Assembly (NCBI RefSeq): GCF_900177805.1 | Contig: NZ_FXAX01000001.1 | Coordinates: 806,001 to 870,000 of the forward strand | Source: Fibrobacter sp. UWB13 | GTDB taxonomy: Bacteria > Fibrobacterota > Fibrobacteria > Fibrobacterales > Fibrobacteraceae | DNA: 64,000 nucleotides | Direction of reading: 5' to 3' | Shown here: piece by piece, positions 15,132-51,409 of the stretch | Layout of the letters: every line of letters begins with the position of its first letter | Position numbering within the stretch: position 1 is the first letter of the stretch | Position numbers and translations under genes: made by a program | The notes under the pieces: generated by a model | The model's input: the letters and a program-made list of their open reading frames with translations, nothing else | What the model was told of the DNA's origin: nothing | The model's database searches: none

Positions 15132-15150
15132 GGAAGTAGGAAGTAGACAG

Positions 15151-15241
15151 AAAGACAACTGCGTAAGGCGAGTGAAGCGCTTATGCTTGCATAGGCATTT
15201 CCGAGCCTAGCAGTTGGTACTTTAGCGAAGCTAAAGTACAA
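15151..15241. repeat. Structured dispersed repeat, copy A (3' untranslated region)
   Basis: On the plus strand AACTGC (15157-15162) pairs with GCAGTT (15210-15215), AGGC (15166-15169) with GCCT (15205-15208), and TATGC with GCATA around a two-base loop (15182-15193). A second perfect hairpin follows: GTACTTTAGC-gaa-GCTAAAGTAC (15217-15239). Related sequences lie at 41432-41512 and, as an insertion, at 26379-26447. It sits between the peptidase stop codon and its terminator. The preceding AGGAAGTAGGAAGTAG run (15131-15146) is a small tandem repeat. Confidence 0.65.
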
Positions 15242-15242
15242 T

Positions 15243-15267
15243 GTCGCGCGGGATTGCGCGACTTTTC
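15243..15267 (+). terminator. Probable terminator of the M23 peptidase gene
   Basis: GTCGCGC, a short loop and GCGCGAC, followed by TTTTCT, just after repeat copy A. The rest of this gap (to 15370) holds nothing I recognise. Confidence 0.65.
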
Positions 15268-26019: not shown

Positions 26020-27092
26020 TTACTTGAGAGCAAGCATCGTAGCAATATTTTCTTCAGAAACACCAATTGAACGAAGATAATCCGCCCTCTTGGCGTCAAG
26101 AGCCTCTTTTTCCGCTTCATTCCTTTCGCGTTCCCGTTCAACCCCTTTACGAACACCTTCATTAAAAAAGTGTTCACCAAAGGATTCGTAGCCCTTATTT
26201 TTCAAAGCCTCTGGACTATCCATCTTGATTACCTCGCTTTTGTAAGGCCACTTCCAGAAAAAGTACGAAAGCGACTGTTTAATAAAATCCCTACCTTCAT
26301 CGGTATTCTGCAGCCTAAGCAAGTGCGCAGCCGCCTCACGAAAAGATATGGAAAACTTCTCTACATCAAAAATATACTAAACCGAGTGTCGCAGCGCAAG
26401 CTTGCTTGCTGCTATGACCGAGGTGCCGTATATTGCGCTTTAGCGCCAATATACTTCATCGCAGTCAGGGCGACAAGTGTGAACGGTGAAAATTCCTTCA
26501 GTTCAGCATCATCAATGGCATGTCCAACATCTAAAAATACAGCCTTGAAAGGATAGCCGATATCATGATAGAACTTGGGATATTCAGCATAATGAGTTTT
26601 CGCCAACGGATTCCATTCATCTTCACCATTATAGACAATGAAGGCAACCACAGGAACATCCTTCTTGCGTTCCAAGAACAAATGATGATAATATTCAGAA
26701 ATTTGAAGAAGCACCTTATCCTTACTTGTAGACTTATGCTCTGCAATAATCCCTACATAGAGTCCCGTAACACCGCCATCCTTAAGATTGACCTCAAAAA
26801 CTAGGTCTGCAGAGCCCGTATGCTTGTCGCTTGAAAAGTTTTCAGGAGTTCCACGAAGGGTTTTGAGATCTATGGTGTCCAAGAACTCTCTAAGCGAAGC
26901 GTTTCGCCGCGAAAAAAGCTTCAGCAGTTCAGCCATTCGCTCAGGATCCGCAAAAGCAAATCTAAAGTACCTATCATGAATAAAGTCGCTCTGTTCATCA
27001 ACAGAATCCACGATTGCATTGAATTCGTGGGCAATGTCACGCGTCACAGAATCTGGAATTTCATTTTTAACCTGTTCATTTTCCAATGCCAT
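26020..27092 (-). pseudogene. Rpn-type PD-(D/E)XK nuclease/transposase gene, interrupted by an insertion (copy 2)
   Basis: The intact gene would encode roughly 300 residues of the Rpn (recombination-promoting nuclease, PD-(D/E)XK transposase-like) family. The N-terminal half (from MALENEQVKNE at 27092) has FIHDRYFRFAFADPERMAEL and the nuclease core GSADLVFEV..GIIAEHKS, with Asp and the ExK motif preserved. After ALTAMKYI a 77-base insertion (69-base element plus one 8-base target copy) shifts the frame and stops it at 26412. The C-terminal half then continues in another frame (26020-26370) to TMLALK. The ribosome site AAGGAC precedes the ATG. Copy 1 at 19475 shows the uninterrupted sequence. 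Confidence 0.88.
26379..26447. mobile_element. Short structured repeat element inserted in the Rpn gene, with 8-bp target duplication
   Basis: Comparison with copy 1 of the gene shows 69 extra bases bounded by AATATACT at 26371-26378 and again at 26448-26455. The insert contains CAGCGCAAGCTTGCTTGCTG (inverted repeat) and ATTGCGCTTTAGCGCCAAT at the right edge (imperfect palindrome). It aligns with repeat copy B: CGAG, GTCGC or GCCGC, CAAG.TTGCTTG, ATG.CCGAG occur in the same order. It has no coding capacity for a transposase, so it must be moved in trans. Confidence 0.75.
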
Positions 27093-41431: not shown

Positions 41432-41512
41432 TTCGTCTTTGTACAAGTTCCAAATGCTCGGCTCGGCCATGTTCAAGCAAACTTGACCGCGGCGCTCGCC
41501 TTACGCATTTGT
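41432..41512. repeat. Structured dispersed repeat, copy B (3' untranslated region)
   Basis: AAATGC (41452-41457) pairs with GCATTT (41505-41510), GGC (41460-41462) with GCC (41498-41500), and TCAAG (41473-41477) with CTTGA (41482-41486). CTTTGTACAAG (41437-41447) is a further near-palindrome. The stems occupy the same places as in copy A but with different, compensating bases. It lies between the last V-ATPase gene and its terminator, in the same orientation relative to transcription as copy A. Confidence 0.65.
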
Positions 41513-41537: not shown

Positions 41538-41993
41538 CTAGCTCACGAGCATCATCGAGAACACCATAACGAACAGCGCGACCGTTTCGCCGACACCGAG
41601 CACCATGAGGTAGTTCACGAGGCCCTTGCCCGTTTCGCCAAGAGCGTTGCAAGCGTCAGCAGCGGACTTACCCACGTACCAGGCGCTAGCCATCATGCCG
41701 ATGCCACCGAAGATGCCTACGCCAAGGTAAGCAGCCCAGTTGCCCGGAGCAGCCTGCGACTTGTTCAAGATGTACATCATCAGGAGCATGCCGTAAATCG
41801 TCTGCGCAATCGGCGCACCCACGAAGATGAGCAGCGTAAAGAGCGCGTTCTTACCCTTGAGATACGCCTTCTTCCAGGCACCGATGGCCGCCATGCCGGC
41901 AGTCCCGCAGCCCAGCGCAGAGCCCACCGCGGCAAGGCCAAGAGCCGCCACCGCACCGAGCTTTGCGAGCGTTAAAAGTTGTGATTGATCCAT
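41538..41993 (-). CDS. atpK: V-type ATPase subunit K (proteolipid), second copy
   Basis: A 151-residue membrane rotor subunit made of two helical hairpins (four membrane helices). The ion-binding Glu of helix 4 is present (GVGETVALF, Glu136), as is helix 2 Gln64 in GAPIAQTIYG. However, position 63 is Ala and position 107 (AWYVGKSAA) is Val. The other copy has Ser and Gln at the equivalents, and the sodium-binding NtpK of Enterococcus has Thr64 and Gln110. It is the last gene of the operon, 18 bases after the first copy, with AGAGG before its ATG. It could join a mixed ring or form a ring of different ion preference. Confidence 0.9.
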   Translation of the reverse strand: MDQSQLLTLAKLGAVAALGLAAVGSALGCGTAGMAAIGAWKKAYLKGKNALFTLLIFVGAPIAQTIYGMLLMMYILNKSQAAPGNWAAYLGVGIFGGIGMMASAWYVGKSAADACNALGETGKGLVNYLMVLGVGETVALFVMVFSMMLVS

Positions 41994-42011: not shown

Positions 42012-42467
42012 TTAAAGCACCATCATGGAGAACACAAGCACGAACAAAGCGACGGTTTCGACGATACCGAGAACCATCAAGTAGTTCACCATGCCCTTGC
42101 CGGTTTCACCGAGAGCATCGCAAGCCACTGCAGCAGACTTGCCCTGGTACCAAGCAGAAGCCATCATGCCGAGGCCACCGAAGATACCAGCACCGAGGCA
42201 GCCGCCCCAGTTCGTAAAGCCCTGTTCAGCAGCCTTGCTCAAGATGAAGTTCATGAGCAACATGCCGTAAATCGTCTGGGAAATCGGAGCACCGACGAAC
42301 ACGAGAAGAGTGAAGAGAGCAGACTTACCCTGAGCGTAAGCCTTCTTCCACATCGTGATAGCAGACATACCGGCCGTTCCGCAACCAAGGGCAGAGCCCA
42401 TAGCCGCAATGCCAAGCGCAGCTGCAGCACCCATTTTAGCGAGAGTCACCATTGTATTCGGTTCCAT
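42012..42467 (-). CDS. atpK: V-type ATPase subunit K (proteolipid), first copy
   Basis: A 151-residue four-helix proteolipid that forms the rotating ring of the V-ATPase. Its predicted ion site has Ser63 and Gln64 (GAPISQTIYG), Gln108 (AWYQGKSAA) and Glu137 (GIVETVALF). These line up with Thr64, Gln65, Gln110 and Glu139, side-chain sodium ligands of Enterococcus hirae NtpK. That set suggests sodium coupling. GAGG lies eight bases before the ATG. The following gene is a second proteolipid with two of these ligands replaced. Confidence 0.92.
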   Translation of the reverse strand: MEPNTMVTLAKMGAAAALGIAAMGSALGCGTAGMSAITMWKKAYAQGKSALFTLLVFVGAPISQTIYGMLLMNFILSKAAEQGFTNWGGCLGAGIFGGLGMMASAWYQGKSAAVACDALGETGKGMVNYLMVLGIVETVALFVLVFSMMVL

Positions 42468-49608: not shown

Positions 49609-51402
49609 ATGAAACGTACACATAACTGCGGCCAGCTTCGCAAGGAAGATGTTGGCCAGACCGTAACACTCGCCGGTTGGGTGGATCGCCGCCGTGACCA
49701 TGGTGGTGTGATTTTCGTTGACCTCCGCGACAAGTATGGCAAGACCCAGATCGTTTTCAATCCGGATTACAATGCCGATGTTTTGAAGACTGCCGAACAG
49801 CTCCGTAACGAATACGTTATTTACGTGACTGGTAAGGTCTACGCCCGCGAAGAAGGCAACACGAACGAAAAGCTCGCTACGGGTGAAATCGAAGTCAAGG
49901 CTGACAAGCTCGAAATTTTGAACGCCGCCCTCACCTCTCCGCTCGCCATTAACGACCCGAACGAAGAATGCAAGGAAAACGACGACCTCCGCTTGCAGTA
50001 CCGCTACCTGGACCTCCGCCGTCCGTGGATCCAGAAGAAGCTCCTCCTCAAGAGCCGCTTCCTCAAGGCCGTGTACGACTTCTTCTATTCTAACGGTTTT
50101 GAAAACATTGAAACTCCGTGCCTTTGCAAGTCCACTCCGGAAGGCGCACGTGACTACCTCGTGCCGTCCCGCGTGAACCCGGGCAAGTTCTACGCCCTCC
50201 CGCAGTCTCCGCAGCAGTACAAGCAGCTCTTGATGATTGCAGGCATGGACCGCTACTTCCAGATCGCCAAGTGCTTCCGCGACGAAGACCTCCGCGCTGA
50301 CCGTCAGCCGGAATTCACGCAGATCGACGTTGAAATGTCTTTCGTCAATCAGGACGAAGTCATGGAAATGTTCGACAAGTTCGTGACTGAAGTTTTGGGC
50401 AAGGTTTGGAACTTCGAACCGCCGCGTCACATCCGCCGTATGAAGTGGGCAGAAGCTATGCTCAAGTACGGTTCCGATAAGCCGGACCTCCGCTTCGACC
50501 TCGAAATTCACGACGTGTCTGAAATCGGTGCAAAGTCCAACTTTGGCGTGTTCAAGAACTGCGTTGCCGCTGGTGGCAAGATCCGCGGTATCGCTGCTAA
50601 GGGTTGCGTTGACTTTACTCGTAAGCAGATCGATGAACTCACGGCTTACGTTGCCAAGTACGGTTCCAAGGGCCTCGTGTGGATGCGCGTCAAGGAAAAT
50701 GACGAAGTTGAAACTCAGGTCGGCAAGTTCTTCACGACCGAACAACTTAACGAACTCCGCGACGCTGTTGGCGCTAAGTGCGGCGACATGATGTTCTTCA
50801 TCGCAGGTCCGGAAAAGATTGCAGCTACGGCTATGGGTCAGCTCCGCTTGGAAGTCGCCCGTATCAAGGGTCTCCGCGATCCGAAGAAGCGTGAATTTGT
50901 GTGGATTACCGAATTCCCGATGTTCGAATACAGCGATACCGAAGGCCGCTACATGGCTATGCACCACCCGTTCACGAACCCGCTTCCGGAACATTTGGAC
51001 ATGATGCTCAGCGGCAACCTCAAGGATTGCAACGCTGAAGCTTATGACCTTGTTCTTAACGGTGTGGAAATCGGCGGTGGTTCTATCCGTATTCACAACC
51101 CAGAAGTTCAGGAAAAGGTGTTCCGCTTGCTCGGCCTCTCCGAAGAACAGGTGAAGACCAAGTTCGGCTTCTTCGTCGATGCATTCAAGTACGGTGCTCC
51201 TCCGCACGGTGGTTTGGCCTTCGGTCTCGACCGCGTTGTTGCTACTATGGAAGGTGAAGAATCTATCCGTGACTACATCGCATTCCCGAAGAACACGAGT
51301 GCTTCTAGCCCGATGGACCAGTGCCCGAGTGAAGTGGACCTCCAGCAGTTGCAGGACATCCACATTTCTGTGCAGTTGCCTAAGGGTAACGAGAAAAAGT
51401 AA
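49609..51402 (+). CDS. aspS: Aspartyl-tRNA synthetase
   Basis: A 597-residue class II synthetase of the bacterial type that charges tRNA-Asp. The N-terminal OB-fold anticodon domain is residues ~1-110 (GQTVTLAGWVDRRRDHGGVI). Motif 2 is KCFRDEDLRADRQPEFTQID, motif 3 is GGLAFGLDRVVATMEG, and the bacterial GAD insertion lies at about residues 290-420. The ATG at 49609 aligns with the family start (MKRTHNCGQL); upstream in-frame codons to 49300 are leader. TATATT at 49570-49575 could be the -10 box. Transcribed alone and ended by the terminator at 51456. Confidence 0.95.
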   Translation: MKRTHNCGQLRKEDVGQTVTLAGWVDRRRDHGGVIFVDLRDKYGKTQIVFNPDYNADVLKTAEQLRNEYVIYVTGKVYAREEGNTNEKLATGEIEVKADKLEILNAALTSPLAINDPNEECKENDDLRLQYRYLDLRRPWIQKKLLLKSRFLKAVYDFFYSNGFENIETPCLCKSTPEGARDYLVPSRVNPGKFYALPQSPQQYKQLLMIAGMDRYFQIAKCFRDEDLRADRQPEFTQIDVEMSFVNQDEVMEMFDKFVTEVLGKVWNFEPPRHIRRMKWAEAMLKYGSDKPDLRFDLEIHDVSEIGAKSNFGVFKNCVAAGGKIRGIAAKGCVDFTRKQIDELTAYVAKYGSKGLVWMRVKENDEVETQVGKFFTTEQLNELRDAVGAKCGDMMFFIAGPEKIAATAMGQLRLEVARIKGLRDPKKREFVWITEFPMFEYSDTEGRYMAMHHPFTNPLPEHLDMMLSGNLKDCNAEAYDLVLNGVEIGGGSIRIHNPEVQEKVFRLLGLSEEQVKTKFGFFVDAFKYGAPPHGGLAFGLDRVVATMEGEESIRDYIAFPKNTSASSPMDQCPSEVDLQQLQDIHISVQLPKGNEKK

Positions 51403-51409
51403 TAGTGGT

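What the first reader, a model, noticed from the sequence alone, without database searches (positions are those of the whole stretch)
15151..15241. Repeat copies A and B share the same stems with compensating base changes
In copy A AACTGC pairs with GCAGTT; in copy B (41452-41510) AAATGC pairs with GCATTT at the same place. The inner hairpin is TATGC/GCATA in A and TCAAG/CTTGA in B. Changes on both sides of two stems suggest selection for RNA or DNA structure. Both copies lie between a stop codon and a terminator, in the same orientation relative to the gene, so they would be part of the 3' end of mRNAs for a wall peptidase and the V-ATPase.
Basis: seen in the sequence. Interest (0 to 1): 0.62.

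Follow-up and report, generated by a model that had tools for sequence, protein, structure and literature searches.

The report
Mobile two-hairpin repeat in Fibrobacter
The two "copies" belong to a family of roughly 80-110-letter DNA repeats that have jumped around Fibrobacter genomes and keep an exact folded shape while their letters change, which points to an unknown enzyme that moves DNA by reading its fold rather than to an RNA tail on messages.

Summary
Copies A (15156-15239 +) and B (41440-41511 -) share the same stems with compensating changes, and a third copy lies at 26368-26446 (+). They belong to a family found in every Fibrobacter-type genome tested (5 to about 126 copies each) and in some sister genera. 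Covariation over 129 distinct copies is far above both controls. The interpretation as a 3'-UTR RNA element is not supported: orientation relative to genes is random (33 same, 29 opposite between co-directional genes), and gaps are used in proportion to their length. Stem pairs show no excess of G-U over A-C (10 v 9 of 1147; tRNA control 10 v 1). Loops are mostly C-TT-G, T-TT-A or C-GNA-G. Orthologous empty sites, dispersed near-identical copies and nested insertions show a mobile DNA element: an imperfect hairpin H1 followed by a perfect hairpin H2, inserted after "GA" with no clear target duplication. No transposase is linked; Y1/RAYT genes are missing from 41 of 61 genomes. Best reading: a non-autonomous repeat mobilised as folded single-stranded DNA by an unidentified enzyme acting in trans, like cyanobacterial SDRs, Haloquadratum SMRs and PATEs, or REPINs.

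The parts
15156..15239 (+). Copy A, whole element (H1 + H2), 84 bp; a following A may belong to it
   Evidence: absent from the orthologous gap in 12 relatives
15156..15162 (+). Copy A, H1 outer stem, 5' arm CAACTGC
   Evidence: perfect inverted repeat with 15210-15216
15210..15216 (+). Copy A, H1 outer stem, 3' arm GCAGTTG
   Evidence: arm varies with compensation across copies
15165..15207 (+). Copy A, conserved core AAGGCGAG-N-G-NN-GCR-hairpin-YAT-NN-CCGAGCC: GGC/GCC stem, tandem G.A (15170-15171 with 15203-15204), bulged base 15173, conserved G.T and C.A mismatches (15177-15178 with 15197-15198)
   Evidence: alignments of 66 and 129 copies
15179..15196 (+). Copy A, variable inner hairpin of H1, CTTG loop
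15217..15239 (+). Copy A, second hairpin H2, GTACTTTAGC-GAA-GCTAAAGTAC
   Evidence: 10-bp perfect inverted repeat, 3-nt loop; H2 follows H1 directly in most copies
41440..41511 (-). Copy B, whole element (CAAATGC...GTACA), 72 bp
   Evidence: removing it gives the sequence of the orthologous gap in L402/L403
41505..41511 (-). Copy B, H1 outer stem, 5' arm CAAATGC
41451..41457 (-). Copy B, H1 outer stem, 3' arm GCATTTG
41441..41450 (-). Copy B, short imperfect H2, GAACTTGTAC
   Evidence: read from sequence
26368..26435 (+). Third, diverged H1 copy; core stem is ACC/GGT instead of GGC/GCC; antisense to both neighbouring genes and overlapping the end of a PF04754 (YhgA-like) gene
   Evidence: cmsearch 40.9 bits
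26435..26446 (+). H2 of the third copy, GCGCTTTAGCGC
   Evidence: read from sequence
15243..15262 (+). Terminator-like hairpin downstream of copy A (host sequence, not part of the element)
   Evidence: a similar hairpin occurs at the empty site in L366 and L367
41408..41429 (-). Terminator-like hairpin downstream of copy B (host sequence)
   Evidence: sequence shows a T run on the minus strand; also present in relatives without the element, L393-L397

Best explanation
The copies are members of a family of small, transposase-free, mobile palindromic repeats confined to Fibrobacter and close relatives. One strand folds into H1 (outer stem, GGC/GCC, tandem G.A, single bulged base, short variable stem, conserved G.T and C.A mismatches, variable inner stem with a C-TT-G-type loop) followed by H2 (perfect stem, C-TT-G or C-GNA-G loop). 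An enzyme supplied in trans probably reads this folded single strand, using the G.A tandem, bulge and mismatches to tell the strands apart, and inserts it after a short 'GA' without a clear target duplication, often into short tandem repeats or into other palindromic repeats. Shown here: mobility, structure conservation, insertion sites, random orientation to genes. Inferred: the single-stranded DNA substrate, the trans-acting enzyme and its identity.
For: Family in 61/61 genomes of the genus, 5 to about 126 copies, and in some sister genera but not in other families. Covariation far above both controls. Orientation and gap use random relative to genes. Empty sites: B against L402/L403, L297 against L365, L281 against the hairpin loop in L296, L153 against window 51380-51408. 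Near-identical copies at many places in one genome, e.g. G013, G047, G063. Nested insertion of one copy into another, L279. G-U not in excess, 10 v 9, against 10 v 1 in a tRNA control. Strand asymmetry: 57 G.A/A.G mismatches against 1 C.T/T.C. Inner loops CTTG 57, TTTA 13, CTCG 12 of 118; H2 loops mostly C-TT-G and C-GNA-G; that these are exceptionally stable in DNA is own knowledge. The CGAG strand folds better than its complement in 72 of 80 elements with DNA parameters. The left flank base at -1 is A in 93%.
Against: No mobilising gene was found; no gene family stands out next to copies. No significant bias to one replication strand, which Y1-type transposition would often give (60 v 45, p 0.17; weak test). 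CTTG loops and tandem G.A are also good in RNA, and the CGAG strand also folds better as RNA (73 of 80). Low G-U could partly come from hairpin-templated correction rather than selection. Insertion into tandem repeats leaves the exact ends uncertain by 1-2 bases.
Confidence: 0.62

Rival explanations
1. A cis-acting RNA element in mRNA 3' ends (stabiliser, processing site or terminator).
For: Copies A and B lie in sense between a stop codon and a terminator. Real covariation. CUUG loops and tandem G.A are stable in RNA (own knowledge).
Against: Random orientation and gap use over 121 copies; copies missing at orthologous sites whose terminators remain; no G-U excess; no Rfam match at the element.
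Confidence: 0.1
2. A REP/REPIN-type element moved by a Y1 REP-associated tyrosine transposase, or an IS200/IS605 derivative (PATE) moved by IS200 TnpA.
For: Two near-terminal hairpins, no clear target duplication, insertion after a short fixed left flank, imperfect stems that set polarity: same architecture as described for PATEs and IS605-type ends (PMC3119063). A Y1 gene, IS200-like where examined, is present in 20/61 genomes.
Against: 41/61 genomes lack any Y1 gene, including G061 with 101 copies and 9 contigs. The Y1 genes found sit in IS200 elements of about 720 bp with other ends, and only two of 27 Y1 loci, from one genome, have a copy nearby.
Confidence: 0.2
3. Spread by an RNA intermediate (reverse transcription or reverse splicing), as suggested for cyanobacterial SDRs.
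For: Small size, nesting, insertion without clear duplication, compensatory changes, no transposase.
Against: No G-U excess; DNA-type loops. Reverse transcriptases were not searched for.
Confidence: 0.12
4. Inert palindromic debris copied by slippage, template switching and recombination between short tandem repeats, with palindromes kept perfect by hairpin-templated repair.
For: Targets are often heptad-like arrays and loops of other palindromes; stems are nearly all Watson-Crick.
Against: Fixed G.T, C.A, tandem G.A and bulge positions persist in over 95% of copies, which such correction would erase; near-identical copies are dispersed with defined ends.
Confidence: 0.1

Closest known systems
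Small dispersed repeats SDR4/5/6 of Nostoc (Elhai et al. 2008; paper not held, recalled; cited in PMC3116915 and PMC3733652)
   Same: Short, structured, with compensatory changes, embedded in tandem heptads and nested in each other, no transposase
   Different: 21-27 nt and cyanobacterial; here 70-110 bp, two hairpins, Fibrobacter
Small mobile repeats (SMR) of Haloquadratum (PMC3119063)
   Same: 80-110 bp, no target duplication, insert into palindromes of other elements, mobilisation enigmatic
   Different: SMRs have terminal inverted repeats and commonly over 95% identity; here H1 and H2 are separate hairpins with strongly diverged stems
PATEs / IS200-IS605 ends (PMC3119063)
   Same: Two near-terminal palindromes, no terminal inverted repeats, no target duplication, non-coding
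   Different: No related IS200/IS605 ends or TnpA linked here
REP/REPIN with RAYT (PMC3116915, PMC2817692); CGTC-tagged REPs without a dedicated transposase (PMC3733652)
   Same: Dispersed intergenic hairpins with preserved pairing; CGTC-type repeats appear to be hosts of one subclass here
   Different: No GTAG tag, no RAYT, two unlike hairpins instead of an inverted REP pair
Integron attC sites (PMC2727003)
   Same: Recognised by fold: variable stems, conserved extrahelical base, unpaired spacer and variable end
   Different: No AAC/GTT boxes; no cassette genes; two hairpins

Membership tests
REP/REPIN moved by RAYT | Y1 (RAYT) gene in the genome | tested here: not met
   PF01797 in 20/61 genomes only; absent in G061 with 101 copies
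REP/REPIN moved by RAYT | Transposase gene flanked by the repeat in inverted orientation | tested here: not met
   R1 finds copies in 2 of 27 Y1 loci, both in one genome, on one side
REP/REPIN moved by RAYT | GTAG or CGTC tag at one end | tested here: not met
   Left flank consensus is GA before CAA; no fixed tetranucleotide tag
PATE (IS200/IS605 derivative) | Near-terminal palindromes, no target duplication, non-coding | tested here: met
   Two hairpins reach the ends; empty sites
PATE (IS200/IS605 derivative) | Ends related to an IS200/IS605 element | tested here: inconclusive
   Local IS200 copies of about 720 bp show no H1 ends by R1 except in one genome; TnpB-only elements not searched
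Cyanobacterial SDR | Compensatory changes, nesting, insertion into tandem repeats, no linked transposase | tested here: met
Cyanobacterial SDR | Sequence of a described SDR family | not tested
Integron attC site | AAC and GTT boxes at the ends | tested here: not met
   Ends are CAA...C(A)
Integron attC site | Integron integrase in the genome | not tested
Known structured RNA family | Match to an Rfam 15 model | tested here: not met
   No match at the element at gathering score or at E up to 5
3'-UTR RNA element | Consistent orientation relative to the upstream gene | tested here: not met
   33 same v 29 opposite between co-directional genes; upstream gene same 65, opposite 56

The most novel reading that the evidence does not exclude
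The family is moved by a previously undescribed recombinase that recognises folded single-stranded DNA by shape (tandem G.A, one bulged base, fixed G.T and C.A mismatches) and not by sequence, without Y1 transposase or integron integrase, making a new kind of mobile system in a whole bacterial family.
Probability: 0.22. Interest if true: 0.85.

Novelty: new variant of a known kind. Interest (0 to 1): 0.6.

Why it matters
Transposase-free small repeats are common in bacteria, and how they move is mostly unknown. This family offers many recent insertions, clear empty sites and hundreds of natural stem variants with a few fixed non-Watson-Crick features, which together define what the mobilising enzyme must read. 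It also shows that covariation alone does not prove an RNA: here it comes with no G-U excess and random orientation, and points to selection on folded DNA.

Tried and rejected
Rfam scans: nothing at the element. Viral contigs gave 37 pattern hits that were not examined. Plasmids and phages: no match. RAYT/Y1 as mover: not supported. Recurrent neighbouring gene family as mover: none specific. Replication-strand bias: not significant. Whether the outer stem or the core alone is the mobile unit: core-free short-loop hairpins with the same outer arms were not found, which favours the whole H1+H2 unit, but nested cases such as L284 v L303 leave it open. A first tRNA control was misregistered and redone.

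Full report
What was checked. The two copies exist as described. A spans 15156-15239 on the plus strand, B 41440-41511 on the minus strand. Both fold far better than shuffled sequence. The genes upstream are a LysM/M23 peptidase and an ATP-synthase subunit C-like (V-ATPase K) gene, and both copies lie between the stop codon and a terminator-like hairpin.

The family. The window lies in a 3.8-Mb genome of the genus called g1 here; the named contigs that carry the element are from Fibrobacter, so I take g1 to be Fibrobacter (inference). A covariance model built from 66 copies finds 55 copies at E below 0.001 in the own genome, 43 to 126 in three other well-assembled genomes, and copies in 61 of 61 genomes of the genus. 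Counts are lower bounds because candidates are capped. In the class, five sister genera of the same family have copies, and no listed match lies outside that family. No plasmid or phage match.

Structure. H1: outer stem of about 7 pairs, fully variable; a small internal loop; GGC/GCC, mostly fixed but replaced by ACC/GGT, GGCC/GGCC or GGT-type pairs in some copies; tandem GA opposite GA in over 95%; a single bulged base that is almost never G; a G-C pair, two freely covarying pairs (TC/GA, CC/GG, AA/TT, TT/AA, CA/TG, AT/AT), then an almost invariant G.T and C.A, an R-Y pair, a second pair that is G.A or A.G in about a third of copies, and a nearly perfect variable stem ending in CTTG, TTTA or CTCG. 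H2 is a mostly perfect hairpin, commonly with C-TT-G, C-GAA-G or C-GTA-G loops.

RNA or DNA. Three tests speak against an RNA role. First, orientation relative to genes is random and the gaps used match gap lengths. Second, in 1147 pairs from 118 non-redundant copies, G-T plus T-G is 10 and A-C plus C-A is 9, whereas acceptor stems of 29 tRNAs found in the fetched DNA give 10 and 1 of 203. Third, loops are of kinds known to be very stable in DNA, with hardly any GNRA or UUCG (loop stability is own knowledge). Yet the strands are not equivalent: 57 G.A/A.G against 1 C.T/T.C, so the strand reading CGAG is the folded one.

Mobility. Copy B is missing from the orthologous gap in 11 relatives and copy A in 12 (two searches gave the loci). 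Removing B gives CTACAGACGA|AAGACGAAAGAA, the sequence in L402 and L403. L297 against L365, L153 against window 51380-51408, and L254/L262/L281 against a hairpin loop in L296 and L253 are further empty sites. A copy sits inside another copy in L279. Genomes G013, G047 and G063 hold several near-identical copies at different places, inside GTAGGAAGTAGACAG arrays. Within genomes, copies share about 90-174 bp and then diverge. The base before the element is A in 93%, and G or A before that in 86%. No target duplication could be recognised, but tandem-repeat targets blur the ends.

Mechanism. Two hairpins at the ends, no clear duplication, a fixed left flank, and polarity set by bulge and mismatches are what single-strand transposition (IS200/IS605, PATEs) or structure-reading recombination (attC) would need. 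But Y1 genes are absent from 41 of 61 genomes, including one with 101 copies, and those present belong to IS200 elements with other ends. No neighbouring gene family stands out. I therefore commit to mobilisation in trans as folded single-stranded DNA by an unidentified enzyme, with the enzyme and the single-strand step inferred.

Comparison. The nearest described kinds are cyanobacterial SDRs (recalled; paper not held), Haloquadratum SMRs and PATEs (PMC3119063), REPINs (PMC3116915) and CGTC-tagged REPs, which also lack a dedicated transposase (PMC3733652). The searches of the open literature done here found no Fibrobacter repeat of this type. Limits: many genomes are draft assemblies; genes were called with a simple script; copies sampled for context are mostly from three genomes and are not independent of shared descent.

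Noticed in passing
window 26412-27092 (-) with 26368-26446: The third copy overlaps the 3' end of a YhgA-like/Rpn gene (PF04754), which may have a new stop from the insertion.
   Followed up: partly
L424, L430, L433, L435, L448, L458, L461: A second palindromic repeat (CTATACGAAACTTGGCAATTTATTGCCTTAGTTGAGTTATCCTCTATGAGGA) is inserted into the loop of H2 in several relatives.
   Followed up: no
window 15135-15150, L084, L422-L441: Short tandem arrays (GTAGGAAGTAGACAG, GACGAGAGACGA, TTAGTGG) fill Fibrobacter gaps and serve as insertion targets.
   Followed up: partly
L288-L296, L312-L323: One subclass is embedded in a CGTCATCCTGA...ATCCAGT repeat resembling the CGTC-tagged REP superfamily.
   Followed up: partly
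L080, L081, L258, L299, L303, L326: In the AAATTTAG subclass the outer arm, its complement and a second copy of the arm after H2 change together, so the middle arm could pair with either neighbour.
   Followed up: no
L456 1460-1560: In a sister genus a copy interrupts sequence matching carB of the own genome (L269); it is unclear whether the gene is intact elsewhere.
   Followed up: no
L335 1943-2005: A copy replaces or abuts one end of an IS200 element in G021.
   Followed up: no
window 41538-41993 and 42012-42467: The V-ATPase K-subunit gene is present twice in tandem.
   Followed up: no
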